In this document: positions 1-6,509 of the stretch, piece after piece
Position numbering within the stretch: position 1 is the stretch's first letter
Layout: the number at the start of each line of letters is the position of its first letter
Assembly: GCA_900321365.1 (NCBI GenBank)
Contig: ONVT01000252.1
Location: 1-6,509, forward strand
DNA: 6,509 nucleotides
Direction: 5' to 3'
DNA from: an uncultured Eubacteriales bacterium
Lineage (GTDB): Bacteria; Bacillota_A; Clostridia; Lachnospirales; Lachnospiraceae
The notes under the pieces: generated by a model
The model's input: only the letters and a program-made list of their open reading frames with translations
Told to the model about the DNA's origin: nothing
Databases searched by the model: none
Position numbers and translations under genes: made by a program

Positions 1-264
1 CGCACAGGAGACGATGTCATCGATCAGGCGGCGGTCATTTCCGGTGATCGCGTCGAGCTGGGTCAGGCCGGACAGGAAGATCAGACTCTCCATGTCCGTC
101 CAGCGGACCTCATCATGGGTGTTGTAGGTGGAGTTGCAGCCGGAAGGATCATGCATCACGACCATCCCGCCCAGCTCATACAGGGCAGAGCATACGCCCG
201 ACACATCCCCCGTATAGACCGGCAGGCTCTGCCATGTCTGTGTTTTCCAGGTTTCTGCTCTCAT
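1..264 (-). CDS. Nitrogenase component 1-like subunit (second of a pair), 5' part only
   Basis: The first 88 residues are visible; the gene continues past the left edge. The start at 264 overlaps the stop of the upstream gene as ATGA, with the purine-rich GGAAAGGA a few bases upstream, so translation is probably coupled. After a short lead the protein reads LPVYTGDVSGVCSALYELGG, then HDPSGCN and HDEVRW. This resembles the N-terminal cluster-binding region of nitrogenase component 1 proteins (NifD/NifK and their relatives), where cysteines sit in an 'SGC' setting. C25 and C43 are the candidate iron-sulfur ligands; a third cysteine, C87, is visible near the edge. The later stretch LSGLTQLDAITGNDRRLIDDI fits the family's conserved region before the third usual ligand, which would lie outside the window. 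By position it is the partner of the complete subunit upstream. Substrate and cofactor cannot be told from this fragment; it is not recognisable as NifD, NifK, BchN/B or CfbD. Confidence 0.8.
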   Translation of the reverse strand, partial: MRAETWKTQTWQSLPVYTGDVSGVCSALYELGGMVVMHDPSGCNSTYNTHDEVRWTDMESLIFLSGLTQLDAITGNDRRLIDDIVSCA

Positions 265-1655
265 TCCTTGTCCTTTCCTGCCGGGACATCGCAAAGGCTC
301 GGCCATCCCATCCCCTTTCTCGGGATGATCTGCTTATAGTCCAGAACTCTCCGGGAAGCCTCCTCGAGCAGGCTGCACAGAACCCGCAGTCCCTGATACC
401 CCCACAGGCCGCCCCCCTCGATCATGTTGACAACGTGACCTGTCTGGCAGAACCACGCGGCCTTCTGGCCGAGAGCGATCACAGGACCTGTGTCCGCGGA
501 ATGATCCGGTGTGGGGATGGCCTGACCCCTGCCGTAGAGCACCATCTTCGGAAGAATCGTCGAAACCAGTTCAAGGTCCGGCGCATTTTTCTGAAGCCAG
601 TCGAACGCTTCCTTCTCTTCCTCCAGAACCGCGTCCAGAAAAACACATTCCACGCGGATCTGGTGCGAGATCAGAAGCTTTGCGATCCCGAGCGGCCTGG
701 AATGGGCAGTGTAATCGATCGCGACACCTGCCTGGCCAAGGACTCTGGACAGGTGGAACAGAGATTCTTCGCACAGTTCTTCCTGTCCGGCGAACCACGC
801 TTCAGAGGGAGCGCTGAATCCGCATGCCTCAGCCAGCGCCAGAATCTGTTCTCTGATCTCTTCATAGGATACTGCCGCGGAAAGATATACATATCCGCGG
901 CCCATCCGTTCCGACAGATGCCGGATGGCATCGCGGGCATTCGGATAAGTGCAGATGTTGACGGCAGCATCCCCCAGAGACAGGAAATCCTGAAAGGTTT
1001 CACAGTCCTGCAGCTGACGCACGTCATATCCCTTCGAAGAGAGCATAGTCACAAGCTCACTGTCCTGAGGAAACGGAACATCAGAACCGAGGATATTGAC
1101 CCGCTCTCTGAGGACCGGGAGGGGCTCAACGGGCCCATACTCCGCCATCCTCAGCTTCATGTCCGGAGTGGGTCCTTCCTTCTGCCGGATACAGTCCATA
1201 TACCCTTTTACAAAACAGATTTCCGGCCAGCGCTCTCGCAGCATCCGGAAGATGTAGTCCTCGTCACTACCGACAAAGATGTGCATGCAGACCAGAAATA
1301 CGAACACGACAGGAGGTCGTATCGGAAGGTGTTCAATCACGTCCGATACTCCCTCGATGGTGATGGTCTCCAGGTTATCTGTCTGGACATCCCTCTCGCG
1401 GATCGTGACAGAGGAAAACCTGTCTGCGCAGCCCATCTCCGCCGCCGTCATGACAACACCCCTGAGGCAGTTGTCCGCGCAAACATAGATACTGTGGGAC
1501 TGGGGAACAGTCATTCCGATATGGACGATATTCCAGGTGCCATGCGCGGGCGCATTGTACTCCAGGGAGCGGGGGAAAGGAGCCGGAAAGGATGCCTGAG
1601 CAATCCGTACCCGCTCACGGATTCCGCTTCCGGAGCCCTTCACTCTCTCCAGCAT
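261..1655 (-). CDS. Nitrogenase component 1-like oxidoreductase subunit (first of a pair)
   Basis: This is a complete 464-residue protein, about the size of NifD/NifK-type subunits. The start at 1655 lies two bases after the stop of the preceding gene and has GGAG eight bases upstream. Near the N-terminus, HGTWNIVHIGM is followed by HSIYVCADNCLRGVV, with C59 and C63 in a CX3C pair, and by C76. C123 in LVCMHIFVGSD sits roughly where the third cluster cysteine falls in component 1 proteins (about 60 residues further on). The middle (around 185-345) looks like alternating Rossmann-type segments, for example VNILGSDVPFP. The C-terminal GGGLWGYQGLRVLCSLLEEA resembles the end of the family fold. 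I could not place equivalents of the NifD Cys and His that hold FeMo-co, so nitrogen fixation is not supported. It probably pairs with the next gene as a heteromer fed with electrons by a NifH-like reductase not seen here. The family call is fairly firm; the substrate is unknown. Confidence 0.82.
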   Translation of the reverse strand: MLERVKGSGSGIRERVRIAQASFPAPFPRSLEYNAPAHGTWNIVHIGMTVPQSHSIYVCADNCLRGVVMTAAEMGCADRFSSVTIRERDVQTDNLETITIEGVSDVIEHLPIRPPVVFVFLVCMHIFVGSDEDYIFRMLRERWPEICFVKGYMDCIRQKEGPTPDMKLRMAEYGPVEPLPVLRERVNILGSDVPFPQDSELVTMLSSKGYDVRQLQDCETFQDFLSLGDAAVNICTYPNARDAIRHLSERMGRGYVYLSAAVSYEEIREQILALAEACGFSAPSEAWFAGQEELCEESLFHLSRVLGQAGVAIDYTAHSRPLGIAKLLISHQIRVECVFLDAVLEEEKEAFDWLQKNAPDLELVSTILPKMVLYGRGQAIPTPDHSADTGPVIALGQKAAWFCQTGHVVNMIEGGGLWGYQGLRVLCSLLEEASRRVLDYKQIIPRKGMGWPSLCDVPAGKDKE

Positions 1656-1657
1656 GG

Positions 1658-1930
1658 TTATTCTCCAGACCCTTCTTCATCCGTGATTACGTCTGAGTAT
1701 GTCGTCTTGCTGGAAACACCTTCCAGTCTTCCGATCTTTCCGGACAGCGCCGAAATGAAATCCTGGGGCGCGTCGATCGCGACACTGATGATATTGATGT
1801 TCCTTTCGCGGTAAGGGATTCCCATTCTTCCGATGACATATTCGGATGCCTCGGAAAGGCAGGCGTTCAGCTTCGCGATTTCTCCCTTGTCTGATACGAT
1901 GATTGACAGCAGTGCTACCCGTTTCTTCAT
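1658..1930 (-). CDS. TM1266-family protein ('iron-only hydrogenase system regulator')
   Basis: The 90-residue protein begins MKKRVALLSIIVSD and carries YVIGRMGIPYRERNINIISV and then ISALSGKIGRLEGVSSKT, the signature of the small TM1266 family. The family has an ACT/NikR C-terminal-like ferredoxin-type fold and is named for its usual place beside [FeFe] hydrogenase maturation genes. It has no DNA-binding domain of its own, so 'regulator' is a name rather than a shown activity. The frame is open for seven more codons to an ATG at 1951, but 1930 is the better start: it has AAAGGAG seven bases upstream and gives the family's usual MKKR beginning. The last ten or so residues (TDEEGSGE) are an acidic tail beyond the conserved core. 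The gene is two bases upstream of the nitrogenase-like gene and is probably co-transcribed with it. In this setting it may serve the nitrogenase-like enzyme rather than a hydrogenase, which is inference. Confidence 0.88.
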   Translation of the reverse strand: MKKRVALLSIIVSDKGEIAKLNACLSEASEYVIGRMGIPYRERNINIISVAIDAPQDFISALSGKIGRLEGVSSKTTYSDVITDEEGSGE

Positions 1931-1937
1931 GAGGTTT

Positions 1938-1944
1938 CTCCTTT
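1938..1944 (-). promoter_or_regulatory. Ribosome binding site of the TM1266-family gene
   Basis: The minus strand reads AAAGGAG seven bases before the ATG at 1930. It decides the start against the ATG at 1951, which has no comparable site. Confidence 0.75.
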
Positions 1945-1947
1945 CAT

Positions 1948-2087
1948 ACAACTCAGTCGGGGTGTCCCCCGCCTCTATAGGTGGTAGGTAAGATACTTTA
2001 CTCAGTGGCGGATGACAAGTCTCCGCTCTGCTCCGGTCGGCGCTAAGCGCTCGTCCACTGGACGAGCAGCGCCCCCGGCTGAGTTGT
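1948..2087 (+). ncRNA. Compact structured element with 15-base inverted-repeat ends; candidate plus-strand RNA or mobile-element relic
   Basis: The ends 1948-1962 and 2073-2087 pair over 15 bases (ACAACTCAGTCGGGG against CCCCGGCTGAGTTGT), with U1957-G2078 as a wobble. Inside are local hairpins: 1958-1971 (CGGGG, loop TGTC, CCCCG, which competes with the inner end of the closing stem), 1970-1983 (CGCCT/AGGTG), 1988-2001 (GTAAG/TTTAC), 2008-2026 (GCGGA/TCCGC with inner GAC/GTC), and a long one at 2033-2078. The long hairpin stacks CCGG, GGCGCT/AGCGCC and a perfect 8-base stem GCTCGTCC/GGACGAGC around loop ACT. Almost every base falls in a helix, which is rare for a plain intergenic gap. Three helices hold G-U pairs on the plus strand that become A-C on the minus strand, so a plus-strand transcript, antisense to the operon, is favoured. 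Alternatives are a small element related to IS200/IS605-type ends or a HEARO/omega-type RNA, or a leader structure in the operon mRNA. I recognise no known family with confidence. Confidence 0.5.
1990..2018 (-). promoter_or_regulatory. Candidate sigma-70-type promoter for the TM1266 and nitrogenase-like genes
   Basis: On the minus strand, TTGTCA (2018-2013, five of six matches to TTGACA) is followed after exactly 17 bases by TATCTT (1995-1990, four of six matches to TATAAT). Transcription would begin near 1983 and give a leader of about 50 bases before the ATG at 1930. If real, the three left-hand genes can be expressed apart from hypFCDE. It lies within the structured element, so the match could be chance. 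Confidence 0.3.
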
Positions 2088-2089
2088 GC

Positions 2090-2103
2090 CAGGCAAAAGC
2101 CTG
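2090..2103. repeat. Short hairpin just downstream of hypE
   Basis: CAGGC and GCCTG form a perfect 5-base stem around AAAA, six bases after the hypE stop codon. Neither strand has a T run after it, so it is not a standard intrinsic terminator. It may mark the right border of the neighbouring structured element. Confidence 0.35.
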
Positions 2104-2109
2104 ATATAA

Positions 2110-3135
2110 CTAACAGATCCTTGGAAGCAGTTCGTTTCCGGGCTGCGGCAGGTACGTCTGTGTTCCGATGGCAGTCTGCATCACGACGCGGCCCTTCTCG
2201 GATCCGGTGACCTTCCCGATCACGGCGGCTTTCTTCGAGTGCTCCCGGCCGCGCAGGATTTCCAGAACATGCTCCGTTTTCTCTTCGGGGACGATCATGA
2301 CAAGCGTCCCTTCACAGGCAAGGTACATCGGGTCCAGTCCGAGCATGCCGGTCACGCCGCGGACAGCCGCATCCACAGGGATGGACTCCTGTTCCAGCAG
2401 GAAGCCGCATCCACTCTCCTGGGCGATCTCATACAGGACGGTTCCGACTCCGCCGCGGGTCGCGTCACGGATCACGTGAACATCAGGAACCTCCCGAAGC
2501 ACCGCCTCCACGCTGTCCCACAGAGGGGCGCAGTCGCTGCTCACTTCGGCTTCGATGCCGAATTCGTCCCGTTCCAGAAGGATACAACACCCATGCCGCC
2601 CAATGTCACCCGTCACCAGGACGCTGTCCCCCGGGAGAGCGAATCTGCCCGAGGTTGAAACGTTATCCTGGATAAGTCCGACACCGGTCGTGGTAATGAA
2701 GACCCCGTCCACCTGGCCCTTTCCGGCAACCTTTGTATCACCCGCAACAATATTGACGCCGGCTTCCTTCGCGGTCACCTCCATGGAGCTGGCAATTGTT
2801 TCAAGCTGGTCAATCGGGAACCCTTCCTCGATGACAAATGCGCAGGTGAGATACAGAGGCTTTGCGCCCATGCACGCCAGATCGTTGACCGTGCCGCAGA
2901 TAGAGAGCTTCCCGATGTTTCCTCCCCGGAAAAACCGCGGCGAAACGATGAATCCGTCTGTCGTCATTGCGATCCTTCCCTCCGGGGCAGGAAGGGTCGC
3001 GGCATCATCCGCGGTAAAGTATGGATTGGAAAAATGCGCCTGAAACACCTGTCCGATCAGCTCTGCTGTCTGCTTCCCTCCCGCGCCGTGCGCGAGTGTC
3101 ACTGTCTTTCCCTTCAGGTCCATGCCTGTCTTCAT
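2110..3135 (-). CDS. hypE: HypE, [NiFe] hydrogenase maturation: carbamoyl dehydratase making the thiocyanate donor
   Basis: The 341-residue protein has the usual length and ends in the diagnostic PRIC. The final cysteine (C341) receives the carbamoyl group from HypF and is dehydrated with ATP to a thiocyanate, which supplies cyanide to the iron on HypC-HypD in the cytoplasm. Other family marks are LAHGAGGKQT (residues 14-23), DDAATL (43-48), FFRGGNIGKLSICGTVNDLA (68-87; many relatives have FPGGDIG here), AGDTKV (131-136) and DATRGGVG (224-231), all part of the PurM-like ATP-binding fold. Two starts are possible: the ATG at 3135 has AAAGG immediately against it, which is too close for a normal site, whereas the ATG at 3123 (MDLKGKTVTLAHG) has the same AAAGG about 12 bases away. 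The longer form is given, but 3123 is equally plausible. It follows hypD by 21 bases and is the last hyp gene before the structured intergenic element. Confidence 0.97.
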   Translation of the reverse strand: MKTGMDLKGKTVTLAHGAGGKQTAELIGQVFQAHFSNPYFTADDAATLPAPEGRIAMTTDGFIVSPRFFRGGNIGKLSICGTVNDLACMGAKPLYLTCAFVIEEGFPIDQLETIASSMEVTAKEAGVNIVAGDTKVAGKGQVDGVFITTTGVGLIQDNVSTSGRFALPGDSVLVTGDIGRHGCCILLERDEFGIEAEVSSDCAPLWDSVEAVLREVPDVHVIRDATRGGVGTVLYEIAQESGCGFLLEQESIPVDAAVRGVTGMLGLDPMYLACEGTLVMIVPEEKTEHVLEILRGREHSKKAAVIGKVTGSEKGRVVMQTAIGTQTYLPQPGNELLPRIC

Positions 3136-3156
3136 CCTTTCTTTGAAATTATCGTT

Positions 3157-4227
3157 TTACTTCTGATACAGATAAAATGCGGAGCAGGCACCCTCGGAAG
3201 ACACCATGCAGGCGCCGACAGGATGCTCCGGGGTGCAGGCTTTCCCGAAGAGAGGACATCCGTCCGGCGTGCAGGCTCCCTGCAGGATCTCCCCGCAGCG
3301 GCATCCTTTCGCTTCCCTTCCCTCCAGCTTCGGAAGACTGTACTTTCTGCGCGCGTCATAGTCGGCCCAGGAATCACGCAGCTCCATGCCCGAGTCCTTC
3401 ATCACACCGATCCCCCGCCACCTCGCGTCGCAGGGCTGCATGTATCTGTCCACGATCGCCCTGGCCGCGGGGCTGCCCTCTTTTGTGACAACTCTCGGAT
3501 AACAATTTACCAGGAACGGTTTTCCTTCCTGTGACTTTTTCACGATGACAGCCAGTGCCGTCAGAAGCTCCGCGGCCGTGAATCCCGCGACGACGCCGCT
3601 CATGCCGAGGCGGAGCATCTCTTCGCAGTCGGACAGTCCCTGCACCGCGCAGACATGTCCGGGATACAGGTAGGCGTCCGTCGTGTCCATCATGGCACGG
3701 TAGGCGGCAGGCATGGTCTTGTTCGCGCACAGGAGGCTGAAATTCTTCAGCCCGTCCGAGACCGCGCTCTCCAGAGCGATGCAGGAGGACGGCGTCGTCG
3801 TCTCGAATCCAACCGACAAAAACACGACCTCCTCATCCGGATGCTCTTTCGCATACGTCTCCGCATCCAGCGGGGAATAAACGACACGCACGGATGCCCC
3901 TTTTCCGCGGGCGGTCTGCAGGCTCAGGGAAGACCCCGGAACCTTGACGAGATCGCCGAAGGTCAGGATGGTGCATCCCTTTTCCAGCGCGAGCATAACC
4001 GCCTCATCGATGTAAGAGACCGGTGTTACACAGACCGGGCATCCCGGCCCCGAGATCAACTCGATATCCTCTGAGAGAAGGCTGCGGATTCCCTGACGGA
4101 AGATCTCATGGGTGTGTGTCCCGCACACCTCCATGATCCTGATCTTCTTTCCGTGATACCCCGTAATGATCCCGCGTGCTTTCTCAAGCGCATTCTGCGT
4201 ACTCTTCTTTCTGCCGTCGTCCGTCAT
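3157..4227 (-). CDS. hypD: HypD, [NiFe] hydrogenase maturation: iron-sulfur scaffold for Fe(CN)2CO
   Basis: The 356-residue protein has the full family length. HypD with HypC holds the iron on which the two cyanides and one CO are assembled. The conserved cysteine motifs are present: EVCGTHTH with C35, and GPGCPVC with C63 and C66 (a CXXC redox pair next to the iron site). GFETTTP is at 140-146. The C-terminal [4Fe-4S] region is cysteine-rich, with C309, C311, C319, C324, C331, C340 and C348 in CRCGEILQG, CPLFGKACTP and GACMVSSEGAC. The ATG at 4227 overlaps the hypC stop as ATGA, with GGAGG about ten bases upstream inside hypC. This suggests coupled translation of the two partners, which act as a complex. 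All expected key residues are present, so the protein should be functional. Confidence 0.97.
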   Translation of the reverse strand: MTDDGRKKSTQNALEKARGIITGYHGKKIRIMEVCGTHTHEIFRQGIRSLLSEDIELISGPGCPVCVTPVSYIDEAVMLALEKGCTILTFGDLVKVPGSSLSLQTARGKGASVRVVYSPLDAETYAKEHPDEEVVFLSVGFETTTPSSCIALESAVSDGLKNFSLLCANKTMPAAYRAMMDTTDAYLYPGHVCAVQGLSDCEEMLRLGMSGVVAGFTAAELLTALAVIVKKSQEGKPFLVNCYPRVVTKEGSPAARAIVDRYMQPCDARWRGIGVMKDSGMELRDSWADYDARRKYSLPKLEGREAKGCRCGEILQGACTPDGCPLFGKACTPEHPVGACMVSSEGACSAFYLYQK

Positions 4228-4436
4228 ACCAGAAGACCCTCCATCAGGTCATTTGCCTCATCCTCCTCATCCTCCGTGATCTTCGCGATGGCGGCTCCAG
4301 CGTGAACCATCACATAATCCCCCGGGACAAGATCTGTCAGCAGCTGCGCCGACACCTGCCTCCGTGCGCCGGAAGCGTCCACAATGGCGCAGCCGTCGCT
4401 CACCCTGACTACTTTAGCAGATAATCCTACACACAT
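4224..4436 (-). CDS. hypC: HypC, [NiFe] hydrogenase maturation chaperone
   Basis: The 70-residue protein begins MCVGLSAKVV. After removal of Met, the cysteine at position 2 binds the Fe(CN)2CO iron together with HypD and delivers it to the hydrogenase large-subunit precursor. The conserved histidine is H45 in VHAGAAIAKI (family form HVGFA or HAGFA). Position 6 is Ser, where most relatives have Pro; this is a small variation outside the cysteine. The C-terminal stretch EDEEDEANDLMEGLLV is the usual acidic helix. An ATG two codons upstream (4442) gives MIMCVG, but it would lie only two bases from the AGGAGG and would bury the essential N-terminal cysteine, so 4436 is chosen. The gene follows hypF by 42 bases and overlaps hypD by four. 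Confidence 0.96.
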   Translation of the reverse strand: MCVGLSAKVVRVSDGCAIVDASGARRQVSAQLLTDLVPGDYVMVHAGAAIAKITEDEEDEANDLMEGLLV

Positions 4437-4444
4437 AATCATGT

Positions 4445-4450
4445 CCTCCT
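4445..4450 (-). promoter_or_regulatory. Ribosome binding site of hypC
   Basis: A perfect AGGAGG on the minus strand stands eight bases before the ATG at 4436 and two before the ATG at 4442. It fixes the start that leaves cysteine at position 2. Confidence 0.85.
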
Positions 4451-4458
4451 GATAATCC

Positions 4459-4477
4459 GGTCTTCCGCCGGAAGACC
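4459..4477 (-). other. Perfect hairpin between hypF and hypC
   Basis: GGTCTTCC and GGAAGACC form an 8-base stem with a 3-base loop, starting one base after the hypF stop codon. No T run follows in the direction of transcription, so it is not a normal intrinsic terminator. It could slow 3' decay of the hypF message or separate hypF translation from that of hypC. Confidence 0.45.
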
Positions 4478-4478
4478 A

Positions 4479-6509
4479 TTATACTCGCAGCATTTCCTGT
4501 GCCGCGAGCGCCTGCCCAAGGCTGATGCCGCCATCATTTGGCGGGATCAGATGGTGGGTATATACCTTCATCCCGCCTGATTCCAGCTTTTCTGATGTCA
4601 GTTTCAGAAGCAGGGTGTTCTGGTAAACGCCTCCGCTGAGCACTGCCCGGTCCAGTCCTGAATTTTCTGACGCGGTGAGAAGGGAAGAAGCGATCATGGA
4701 CGCAAGCGATTCATGGAACAGGTACGCAAGCTCGCCTGCCCCTCTCCCCATCCTGCGCTCTTCAATGATTTTTCCAAAGAGCAGATCAGTTGGGAGCGTC
4801 AGGAAGCCGTCCCCTGAGCGTGACGATCCTTTGTCTCTATCCTCACCGAAATCCGTTTCTGCCGTTAAAACGCATCCGTCTGCTTCCTCCCCGCATCTGA
4901 CAATACGGTTGTGCCCTTCCTTCTTCAGGTACGCCTCAGCGGCAAACTGCAGCGATGTCGAGGCTTCCCCCTCAAAGGTCGACTCCCGGCAGATACCGAG
5001 ACAGGCACTGACTGCGTCGAACAGCCTCCCCGCGCTGGTGGAGACAGCCGTGTTCATCCTCCTGTCAGCCATGAGGGAGATGGTCTTCAGCTGCGCGGCA
5101 CTGCAGATCGAAAGCTCCTGAACAATCTGTGCCGCCTGATCATCCCCGTACAGGGAATGGATCATGGAGGCGGCGATACGCCATCCCTCACGTGCGGCCA
5201 CATCGCCGCCGACCATCAGAAACGGCCGTATGCTCCCGATCCGTTCAAAATGTCCGCGGTCTGCCTTCATCAGCTCTCCGCCCCAGATGGTACCGTCCGT
5301 CCCCCATCCGGTTCCGTCGAAGGACGCGCCGAGAACCTCGCCGTCCAGGTCATTTTCCGCCATACAGGAGACAATGTGGGCAAAATGATGCTGCACCCGG
5401 ATAAGCGTAATGCCGCGCTCTTTTGCCAGCTGCTCAGCGTACTGCGTCGAGTGATATCCGGGATGAAGGTCGCAGACAATGGCCTGCGCCTTCCTCTCGA
5501 GGAGCGTTTCCATCCGCCGGGCAGACTCTGCAAGCGCCCGGACAGACCTGGGATCCGCAAGGTCGCCGACATAGGCGGACGGATAAAACAGCGGCCCTAT
5601 TCCAATGCAGAAGGTGTTCTTCAGCTCGCCGCCCGCCGCGAGCACCGTCTTTTCGTAATTGCCGCCGGTAAGAACCGGAAGAGGCGCATATCCCCTTGAT
5701 CTCCGGATCATGTAGGGCTGAGCGCGGTCAAAATCCATGACAGAGTCATCGCATCGGATCCGGATCTTCCGGTCATGGGACAGGATCGCGTCCGCGAATC
5801 CGCCAAGCTCTCTCAGCGCCTCTTCATCATCCCGGCAGATCGGGGCACCGGACACATTCCCGCTGGTCATCACCAGGCTGTCCGGCATCCTGGTCTCGTC
5901 CGGAAAGTCAAACAGCAGCATCTGGACCGGCGCGTAGGGAAGCATGACACCGACCTTCGGATTCCCGGGGGCGATAGCCTCACACAGGTCTGACCCCTCT
6001 TTCTTCTCAAGCAGCAGGATCGGTTTCAGATGTCCGGTCAGGATCTTCCTCTGGGCTTCATCGACAATGCAGGAGCGCAGGACTGTCTCTTCGTCGCGCA
6101 TCATCACCGCGAAGGGTTTGACCGGGCGATGCTTCCTCTGACGAAGGCGCGTCACCGCCTCCTGAGATGTGGCGTCGCAACACAGGTGGAATCCGCCGAT
6201 TCCCTTCACCGCCAGGATCTTCCCTTCGGACAGCATCTTCCGGGCGAGACGAATCGCGTCATGGCCGCGCTCATCTCTTCCCAGAAGATAAACCTCAGGA
6301 CCGCAGTCATTGCAGCAGACCGGCTGTGCATCATACCTTCTCGAGGAGGGATCCTCATACTCTTCCGCACACCTTGTGCACATGGGAAATTCCTTCATGC
6401 TGGTCCTGGCACGGTCATAGGGCAGCTCATCGAGAATCGTCAGCCTCGGGCCACACTGCGTACAGTTGATGAAGGGGTGAAGATACCTCCGGTTCCCCGG
6501 ATCGAACAG
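4479..6509 (-). CDS. hypF: HypF, [NiFe] hydrogenase maturation carbamoyltransferase, N-terminus outside the window
   Basis: The frame stays open to the right edge, giving 676 visible residues, so the internal ATG at 6398 is not the start. HypF converts carbamoyl phosphate and ATP to carbamoyl-adenylate and passes the carbamoyl group to HypE. The missing part, roughly the first 115 residues by comparison with the E. coli protein, should hold the acylphosphatase domain and the first cysteine pair of zinc finger 1. Visible in order are the second half of zinc finger 1 (RRYLHPFINCTQCGP), zinc finger 2 (MCTRC with CCNDCGP), and the YrdC-like domain from about residue 95 (VKGIGGFHLCCDA, RQRKHRPVKPFAVM, VMTSGNVSGAPICRDDEEA). 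The Kae1-like domain follows, with CDLHPGYHSTQYAE, the metal-binding VQHHFAH, FDGTGWGTDGTIWGGE and, near the end, SGGVYQN with PPNDGGISLGQA. A charged stretch around residues 550-570 (GEDRDKGSSRSGDG) looks like a variable loop. It is the first gene of the visible operon and no inactivating change is seen. Confidence 0.97.
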   Translation of the reverse strand: MFDPGNRRYLHPFINCTQCGPRLTILDELPYDRARTSMKEFPMCTRCAEEYEDPSSRRYDAQPVCCNDCGPEVYLLGRDERGHDAIRLARKMLSEGKILAVKGIGGFHLCCDATSQEAVTRLRQRKHRPVKPFAVMMRDEETVLRSCIVDEAQRKILTGHLKPILLLEKKEGSDLCEAIAPGNPKVGVMLPYAPVQMLLFDFPDETRMPDSLVMTSGNVSGAPICRDDEEALRELGGFADAILSHDRKIRIRCDDSVMDFDRAQPYMIRRSRGYAPLPVLTGGNYEKTVLAAGGELKNTFCIGIGPLFYPSAYVGDLADPRSVRALAESARRMETLLERKAQAIVCDLHPGYHSTQYAEQLAKERGITLIRVQHHFAHIVSCMAENDLDGEVLGASFDGTGWGTDGTIWGGELMKADRGHFERIGSIRPFLMVGGDVAAREGWRIAASMIHSLYGDDQAAQIVQELSICSAAQLKTISLMADRRMNTAVSTSAGRLFDAVSACLGICRESTFEGEASTSLQFAAEAYLKKEGHNRIVRCGEEADGCVLTAETDFGEDRDKGSSRSGDGFLTLPTDLLFGKIIEERRMGRGAGELAYLFHESLASMIASSLLTASENSGLDRAVLSGGVYQNTLLLKLTSEKLESGGMKVYTHHLIPPNDGGISLGQALAAQEMLRV

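What the first reader, a model, noticed from the sequence alone, without database searches (positions are those of the whole stretch)
1..6509. One directional array joins HypFCDE, a TM1266 protein and a nitrogenase-like pair
Seen: hypF, hypC, hypD, hypE, then a TM1266-family gene and two component 1-like genes, all on the minus strand and tightly packed apart from one 179-base gap. Known: HypFCDE make Fe(CN)2CO for [NiFe] hydrogenases, TM1266 proteins are usually tied to [FeFe] hydrogenase loci, and component 1-like proteins outside nitrogen fixation include enzymes for F430, (bacterio)chlorophyll and methylthio-alkane reduction. Inference: the locus may encode a reductase system of unknown substrate that shares electron flow or metal-cofactor supply with hydrogen metabolism. 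Simple side-by-side placement of unrelated units is the main alternative.
Basis: partly seen in the sequence, partly recalled or inferred. Interest (0 to 1): 0.72.

Follow-up and report, generated by a model that had tools for sequence, protein, structure and literature searches.

The report
Apparent HydG-free hydrogenase cofactor assembly operon
Gut and rumen bacteria carry a conserved operon that seems to build the iron-CO-cyanide cofactor of [FeFe] hydrogenases without the standard enzyme HydG, apparently by combining the [NiFe]-hydrogenase cyanide machinery with two nitrogenase-like enzyme pairs.

Summary
The window is the middle of a larger conserved operon: nifH-like, D1, K1 (first nitrogenase-like pair), hypF, hypC, hypD, hypE, TM1266, (second nifH-like), D2, K2 (second pair), hydF, hydE. 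76 of 80 fetched loci join the pair to hyp genes. The link is to [FeFe], not [NiFe], hydrogenase. Of 50 carrier genomes, 49 match HydA, 46 HydE and none HydG over cut-off; 6 match a [NiFe] large subunit. In a 346-genome family sample, HydG is found in 0 of 31 genomes with both D2 and HypD, against 149 of 295 without D2. Best reading: an alternative H-cluster assembly route in which HypFCDE supply the Fe-CN/CO unit that HydG normally makes, and the nitrogenase-like pairs do ATP-driven reduction or scaffolding before HydE and HydF. HydG replacement is inferred, not shown; the pairs' chemistry is unknown. Dos Santos et al. 2012 (PMC3464626) noted NifHEN-like proteins near hydrogenase maturation genes; the parts I read do not mention missing HydG. 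Caveats: D2K2 also occurs beside an ABC importer without hyp genes, and 79 HydA-bearing genomes have neither HydG nor D2.

The parts
4479..6509 (-). hypF, carbamoyltransferase, 5' end cut by the window edge (zinc fingers, YrdC and Kae1-like parts present)
   Evidence: TIGR00143 639 bits, cut-off 466; Pfam zf-HYPF, Sua5_yciO_yrdC, HypF_C, HypF_C_2
4224..4436 (-). hypC, start read at the MCVG codon (the mechanical ORF runs to 4442)
   Evidence: TIGR00074 60 bits, cut-off 48; MCVG start conserved in relatives
3157..4227 (-). hypD
   Evidence: TIGR00075 375 bits, cut-off 193; CGTHTHEI and GPGCPVC motifs conserved
2110..3135 (-). hypE, with C-terminal ...PRIC
   Evidence: TIGR02124 419 bits, cut-off 252; PRIC end conserved
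1931..2109 (-). 179-base gap that folds strongly; not conserved in relatives
   Evidence: fold z-score -4.69 for 1925-2115; no Rfam match in it; no match better than E 7.5 in the 80 loci
1658..1930 (-). TM1266-family protein (putative regulator of iron-only hydrogenase systems, by family name)
   Evidence: TIGR03959 106 bits, cut-off 61; PF21699
261..1655 (-). D2, first subunit of the second nitrogenase-like pair; Cys59, Cys63, Cys123 invariant in the 28 aligned sequences
   Evidence: PF00148 39.4 bits; A1; model pLDDT 85.6; top PDB fold matches are MarDK, NifEN and nitrogenase component 1, TM-score about 0.6
1..263 (-). K2, partner subunit, cut by the left window edge
   Evidence: invariant DxSG and HDPSGCNST-NTHDE motifs shared with 19 relatives

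Best explanation
The window is the core of a dedicated [FeFe]-hydrogenase H-cluster assembly operon that works without HydG. Likely steps: (1) HypF and HypE make the cyanide ligand from carbamoyl phosphate and HypCD builds an Fe-CN/CO unit (known Hyp chemistry; motifs intact here). (2) One or two NifH-like ATPases drive electrons into two NifEN-like pairs, D1K1 and D2K2, which make the extra CO (for example from CO2) and/or hold and reductively remodel the Fe-CN/CO unit (inferred; which pair does what is unknown). (3) HydE and HydF, encoded at the end of the operon, finish the [2Fe] subcluster and deliver it to an ordinary HydA. TM1266 is probably the regulator. Shown: gene order, domain assignments, motif conservation, no HydG over cut-off in 50 carrier genomes, HydA and HydE in nearly all. 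Inferred: that the module replaces HydG, and the chemistry of the pairs.
For: Gene order kept in loci whose record titles name Lachnospiraceae, Oscillospiraceae/Saccharofermentans and Coriobacteria/Atopobiaceae. HydF and HydE of L010 pass equivalog cut-offs (528 vs 325.6 and 552 vs 254.6 bits). In 50 carrier genomes: HydG over cut-off 0 of 50 (T. maritima control found; all candidates scored; the four best sub-threshold hits are ThiH); HydA (PF02906) 49 of 50, 41 of 50 at 298 bits or more, two of the rest only short fragments; HydE 46 of 50; [NiFe] large subunit 6 of 50. The 30 best-scoring HydA loci keep TSC[SC]PGW in 30 of 30, [MI]PC in 30 of 30 and the third H-cluster motif in 29 of 30; 30 HydG+ genomes gave 30, 29 and 27. 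Family sample of 346: D2 at 300+ bits in 39, HydG in 3 of these 39 against 149 of 295 with no D2 (p = 8.5e-8); the three exceptions all lack HypD; D2+HypD+ genomes have HydG in 0 of 31 (p = 1.8e-9). HypD in 31 of 39 strong-D2 genomes against 2 of 20 HydG+ genomes tested (p = 5e-7). In MA2020 H1-D1K1-hypFCDE and D2-K2 sit at separate loci yet co-occur (L205; L026). Motifs conserved in Hyp, HydE, HydF and NifH-like proteins.
Against: No experiment. 79 of 238 genomes with HydA over cut-off have neither HydG nor D2; 9 of those 79 have HydE and none of the nine has HypD, so HydA alone does not prove an active maturation route. D2K2 also occurs without HypD beside a FecBCD-type ABC importer (7 of the 39; 2 of those 7 with HydG), so D2K2 by itself is not a strict HydG substitute. 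HypCD is known to make Fe(CN)2CO, not the Fe(CO)2CN that HydG makes, so extra steps are needed. PMC9431212 (passages) cites that HydE plus HydF without HydG activate HydA to about 1%, and reports acetogens in which HydG was not detected, so HydG loss may have other explanations. HypB passes its cut-off in 18 of 50 carrier genomes, and HypFCDE may also serve the hydrogenase in the six genomes with a [NiFe] match. Most genomes are MAGs, completeness was not given, and related genomes are not independent in the Fisher tests.
Confidence: 0.7

Rival explanations
1. The nitrogenase-like pairs are catalytic reductases of an unknown substrate that carry their own Hyp/HydEF-made organometallic cofactor; H-cluster assembly is not their purpose.
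For: Component 1 fold for D1 and D2; NifH-like ATPase with intact P-loop and cluster cysteines; a D2K2 context with an ABC importer and no HypD.
Against: HydA with normal H-cluster motifs is retained while HydG is missing; HydE and HydF have no known role outside H-cluster assembly (recalled); this reading leaves the missing HydG unexplained.
Confidence: 0.12
2. The hyp genes serve a [NiFe] hydrogenase and stand by chance beside an unrelated nitrogenase-like unit.
For: 6 of 50 carrier genomes match a [NiFe] large subunit; the one read in full is Ech-like with both metal-site motifs; 5 of those 6 have two HypB matches.
Against: 44 of 50 have no [NiFe] large-subunit match; hyp genes stand beside the pair in 76 of 80 loci.
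Confidence: 0.03
3. The operon takes part in H-cluster assembly, but CO and CN come from an unidentified HydG-like enzyme elsewhere; the pairs only deliver iron, electrons or sulfur.
For: D2K2 beside iron-type ABC importers and, in four of seven loci, HydF; two such genomes do have HydG (G238, G345).
Against: In genomes with the hyp+D2 set no HydG is found (0 of 50; 0 of 31); HypF and HypE are a complete cyanide-making set.
Confidence: 0.15

Closest known systems
Canonical HydEFG [FeFe]-hydrogenase maturation
   Same: HydE, HydF and HydA present with intact motifs; TM1266-family gene in the operon
   Different: HydG over cut-off in 0 of 50 carrier genomes; HypFCDE and nitrogenase-like pairs in the same operon
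[NiFe]-hydrogenase maturation by HypABCDEF
   Same: Complete hypF, hypC, hypD, hypE with conserved motifs
   Different: No [NiFe] large-subunit match in 44 of 50 genomes; hypA/hypB not among the conserved gene clusters
NifH with NifDK and NifEN (nitrogenase and its cofactor scaffold)
   Same: NifH-like ATPase plus two component 1-like pairs encoded together; same fold
   Different: D1 matches NifE at only 65 bits (cut-off 505); NifB over cut-off in 1 of 50 genomes
NifHEN-like genes near hydrogenase maturation genes in Coprococcus catus GD/7 (Dos Santos et al. 2012, PMC3464626)
   Same: Two linked NifHEN-like copies, association with hydrogenase maturation proteins, and a suggested role in active-site metallocluster assembly
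   Different: The parts read do not mention missing HydG, HypFCDE without [NiFe] hydrogenase, or the full operon; I did not look at those two named genomes
Methylthio-alkane reductase MarHDK
   Same: Top PDB fold match of D2 (9fmg)
   Different: Hydrogenase-maturation context; no NifB over cut-off in 49 of 50 genomes

Membership tests
Canonical HydEFG H-cluster maturation | HydE present | tested here: met
   46 of 50 genomes over cut-off; in the operon of L010
Canonical HydEFG H-cluster maturation | HydF present | tested here: met
   L010 HydF 528 bits, cut-off 325.6; HydF cluster in 42 of 80 loci, many cut by contig ends; not searched genome-wide
Canonical HydEFG H-cluster maturation | HydG present | tested here: not met
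   0 of 50 over cut-off; 0 of 31 D2+HypD+ genomes in the family sample
Canonical HydEFG H-cluster maturation | HydA with H-cluster ligand motifs as client | tested here: met
   49 of 50 genomes; motifs in 30, 30 and 29 of the 30 best-scoring loci (motifs recalled)
HypABCDEF [NiFe] maturation | HypF, HypC, HypD, HypE with conserved motifs | tested here: met
HypABCDEF [NiFe] maturation | HypA and HypB (nickel insertion) | tested here: inconclusive
   HypB in 18 of 50 over cut-off, not among the conserved clusters; HypA not tested
HypABCDEF [NiFe] maturation | [NiFe] hydrogenase large subunit as client | tested here: not met
   no match in 44 of 50; 6 with a match to the N-terminal part, one read in full and Ech-like
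Nitrogenase / FeMo-co pathway | NifB for the cofactor core | tested here: not met
   1 of 50 over cut-off, 5 more at 271-275 bits
Nitrogenase / FeMo-co pathway | FeMo-co ligands Cys275 and His442 | tested here: inconclusive
   no invariant Cys or His seen at these places in D2 by inspection; no reliable residue-level alignment there
NifEN/DPOR-type reductase with interface Fe-S cluster | conserved Cys at P-cluster-type positions of both subunits | tested here: met
   D2 Cys123 and D1 Cys129 align with the MarD/NifE or nitrogenase cysteine, D1 Cys68/69 with the NifE one; K2 SGC invariant, its equivalence to the NifK/NifN cysteine not aligned; the cluster itself not testable

The most novel reading that the evidence does not exclude
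A HydG-free biosynthesis of the [FeFe]-hydrogenase H-cluster: Hyp-made iron-cyanide-CO units are turned into the two-iron subcluster by two nitrogenase-like pairs (one possibly a CO2-to-CO reductase, one a NifEN-like scaffold), so that a [NiFe]-type ligand pathway and a nitrogenase-type assembly pathway together build an [FeFe] cofactor.
Probability: 0.6. Interest if true: 0.93.

Novelty: new variant of a known kind. Interest (0 to 1): 0.85.

Why it matters
HydG is the known source of the CO and cyanide in the H-cluster. A second route built from [NiFe]-hydrogenase and nitrogenase-like parts would change the picture of how organometallic cofactors evolve, explain how HydG-less gut bacteria make [FeFe] hydrogenases, and give a concrete function to a large uncharacterised nitrogenase-like clade. 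It is directly testable in named strains (Lachnospiraceae bacterium MA2020 and Sarcina sp. DSM 11001 among the loci here; [quoted passage not shown]

Tried and rejected
Rejected: chance adjacency; a [NiFe]-hydrogenase operon; a NifB-dependent cofactor in most carriers; TSCSPGW in HydA as a mark of HydG-less genomes (23 of 30, but also 16 of 30 in HydG+ genomes); an Rfam element in the 179-base gap (one match in the whole window, 18 bits against a cut-off of 40, elsewhere); conservation of the gap. Searches ('lacks HydG', 'lacking HydG', 'no HydG' and similar; 3 of: HypCDEF, nitrogenase-like, HydF, NifEN, Fe-hydrogenase) returned 0 papers; the library lacks most subscription journals. Papers: PMC3464626 one section and passages; PMC9431212 passages; PMC10418091 passages; all others search listings only.

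Limits: only the best 4 or 5 first-look candidates per genome were scored, so a few D2, HydG or HydA may be missed there; all candidates were scored. The 50 carrier genomes are a hand-picked 50 of the 80 loci (first 29 plus mostly longer contigs), not a random draw, and were chosen before any result on HydG. Twelve genomes with weak D2 (105-293 bits) were set aside; 3 of the 12 have HydG and 1 has HypD. Gene calls in loci came from my own simple ORF script, so starts and family counts are approximate; locus tallies are lower bounds because of contig ends. Of 158 loci with a relative, the tool kept 80. HypD was looked up in 20 of the 149 HydG+ genomes without D2. The ABC importers were identified by Pfam in one locus (L144), one ATPase by NCBIfam (L138), the others by eye. 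The two genomes named by Dos Santos et al. were not examined.
Full report
What is in the window. On the minus strand, 5' to 3': hypF (cut at its 5' end), hypC, hypD, hypE, a 179-base gap, a TM1266-family gene, D2 and the start of K2. Family models confirm hypF, hypC, hypD, hypE and TM1266 and place D2 in Pfam Oxidored_nitro. K2 is recognised only by alignment to full-length relatives. No genome is held for the window.

The full operon. A search for D2 relatives gave 2846 proteins among 7998 scored candidates, a capped set, and 80 of 158 genome loci were kept. By record title they come from Lachnospiraceae, Oscillospiraceae/Saccharofermentans and, in a second phylum, Coriobacteria/Atopobiaceae, many from rumen and gut. 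Clustering of their genes gives one prevailing order: nifH-like, D1, K1, hypF, hypC, hypD, hypE, TM1266, often a second nifH-like gene (in some fused to D2), D2, K2, hydF, hydE. Of 80 loci, 76 have a hyp gene on the same strand, 51 a called D1, 50 TM1266, 42 hydF and 26 hydE; contig ends cut many, and some actinobacterial loci lack TM1266. In L010 the end genes are HydF (528 bits, cut-off 325.6) and HydE (552, cut-off 254.6); the first is NifH-like (PF00142), and D1, K1 and K2 are Oxidored_nitro proteins. Loci closest to the window (such as L004, L005, L010) show one nifH-like gene for two pairs, like NifH serving NifDK and NifEN.

Which hydrogenase. In 50 carrier genomes (50 of the 80 loci, the limit per call): HydG over cut-off 0 of 50 (T. 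maritima found as control; the four best sub-threshold hits are ThiH; most others lie at the HydE coordinates, compared by eye). HydA by PF02906 in 49 of 50, in 41 of 50 at 298 bits or more. HydE 46 of 50. [NiFe] large subunit 6 of 50, matching its N-terminal part only; the one read in full is Ech-like with both metal-site motifs (L115). HypB 18 of 50, two matches in 5 of the 6 genomes with a [NiFe] match. NifB 1 of 50 over cut-off. The 30 best-scoring HydA loci of carrier genomes keep TSC[SC]PGW in 30 of 30, [MI]PC in 30 of 30 and the third motif in 29 of 30 (motifs recalled), so an ordinary H-cluster is expected.

Control sample. In 346 genomes of the family of MA2020 (tallied), D2 at 300 bits or more occurs in 39. 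HydG occurs in 3 of these 39 and in 149 of 295 without D2 (p = 8.5e-8; 12 genomes with weak D2 set aside, 3 of them HydG+); among genomes with HydA over cut-off, 3 of 34 against 116 of 195 (p = 1.5e-8). HypD occurs in 31 of the 39, and all three HydG exceptions are among the eight without HypD, so the D2+HypD+ set has HydG in 0 of 31 (p = 1.8e-9). HypD occurs in 2 of 20 HydG+ genomes tested. Four genomes (G008, G020, G026, G029) are in both this sample and the 50. These tests ignore relatedness.

Results that pull the other way. Of 238 genomes with HydA over cut-off, 79 have neither HydG nor D2; 9 of the 79 have HydE (8 over cut-off) and none of those nine has HypD. So many HydA genes sit in genomes without recognisable maturases, and HydA alone proves nothing; the retained HydE and HydF are the stronger argument. 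Of the eight strong-D2 genomes without HypD, seven (G164, G196, G239, G150, G283, G238, G345) carry H-D2-K2 beside a FecCD/FecB-type ABC importer, six of the seven with TM1266, four with HydF and two with HydE in view (Pfam for L144 only); two of the seven have HydG. The eighth (G375, HydG+) is cut by a contig end. D2K2 therefore seems to have a role in or near H-cluster assembly that does not always replace HydG; the part tied to missing HydG is the set with hypFCDE (and, where seen, D1K1). Weaker D2 relatives sit with ABC importers in most of the loci read (HypD in 1 of 12). PMC9431212 (passages) cites about 1% HydA activation by HydE plus HydF without HydG.

The proteins. Motifs are conserved in HypC, HypD, HypE, HypF, HydE, HydF and the NifH-like proteins. 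D2 and D1 models are confident (pLDDT 85.6 and 84.5) and match nitrogenase component 1 folds, with MarDK, NifEN and nitrogenase among the best and TM-scores near 0.6-0.7. D2 Cys123 and D1 Cys129 align with a conserved cysteine of MarD/NifE or nitrogenase; D1 Cys68/69 with the NifE one; K2 has an invariant SGC and an invariant Asp. An interface Fe-S cluster of NifEN/DPOR type is likely; that the Asp could be a ligand as in DPOR is a guess.

Mechanism. Known: HydG makes the CO and CN of the H-cluster and HypFCDE make Fe(CN)2CO (passages of PMC9431212). Inferred: HypFCDE replace HydG as the source of the Fe-CN/CO unit; the extra CO and the change of ligand set need reduction or transfer, which the ATP-driven pairs could give (that nitrogenase components can reduce CO2 to CO is recalled, from no call); HydE and HydF finish the cluster. 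Arithmetic note: one Fe(CN)2CO plus one Fe(CO)2 has the ligand count of the two-iron site (3 CO, 2 CN; recalled), though the cyanides would have to be shared out.

Prior work. Dos Santos et al. [quoted passage not shown] catus and Dorea longicatena have two closely linked copies. PMC9431212 reports acetogens in which HydG was not found and proposes divergent HydG or HydE/HydF-only activation in the passages read. No listing of my ten searches showed a paper on HydG-less carriers of this operon, within an open-access library and judged from titles and abstracts.

Verdict.

Noticed in passing
window 1931-2109: The hypE-TM1266 gap folds much better than shuffles (z -4.69), with long inverted arms; no Rfam match in it and no significant match in relatives.
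   Followed up: partly
L138, L139, L144, L201-L204: A second context: H-D2-K2 with a FecCD/FecB-type ABC importer, six of seven with TM1266 and some with HydF/HydE, without HypD; five of the seven genomes showed no HydG either, so how they would make CO and CN is open.
   Followed up: partly
family sample, 79 genomes: Many genomes of this family have HydA over cut-off but no HydG and no D2, and 70 of these 79 also no HydE.
   Followed up: partly
L149, L154: HydF-HydE pairs near SsuC/TauC-like ABC permease genes (read by eye) in genomes without HydG, D2 or HypD.
   Followed up: no
L085-L114, L167-L196: HydA with TSCSPGW in place of TSCCPGW (Ser at the usual proton-relay Cys, recalled) is common: 23 of 30 and 16 of 30.
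   Followed up: partly
G016, G019, G026, G032, G036, G042: NifB-like matches (271-389 bits) in six of 50 carrier genomes, one over the NifB cut-off.
   Followed up: no
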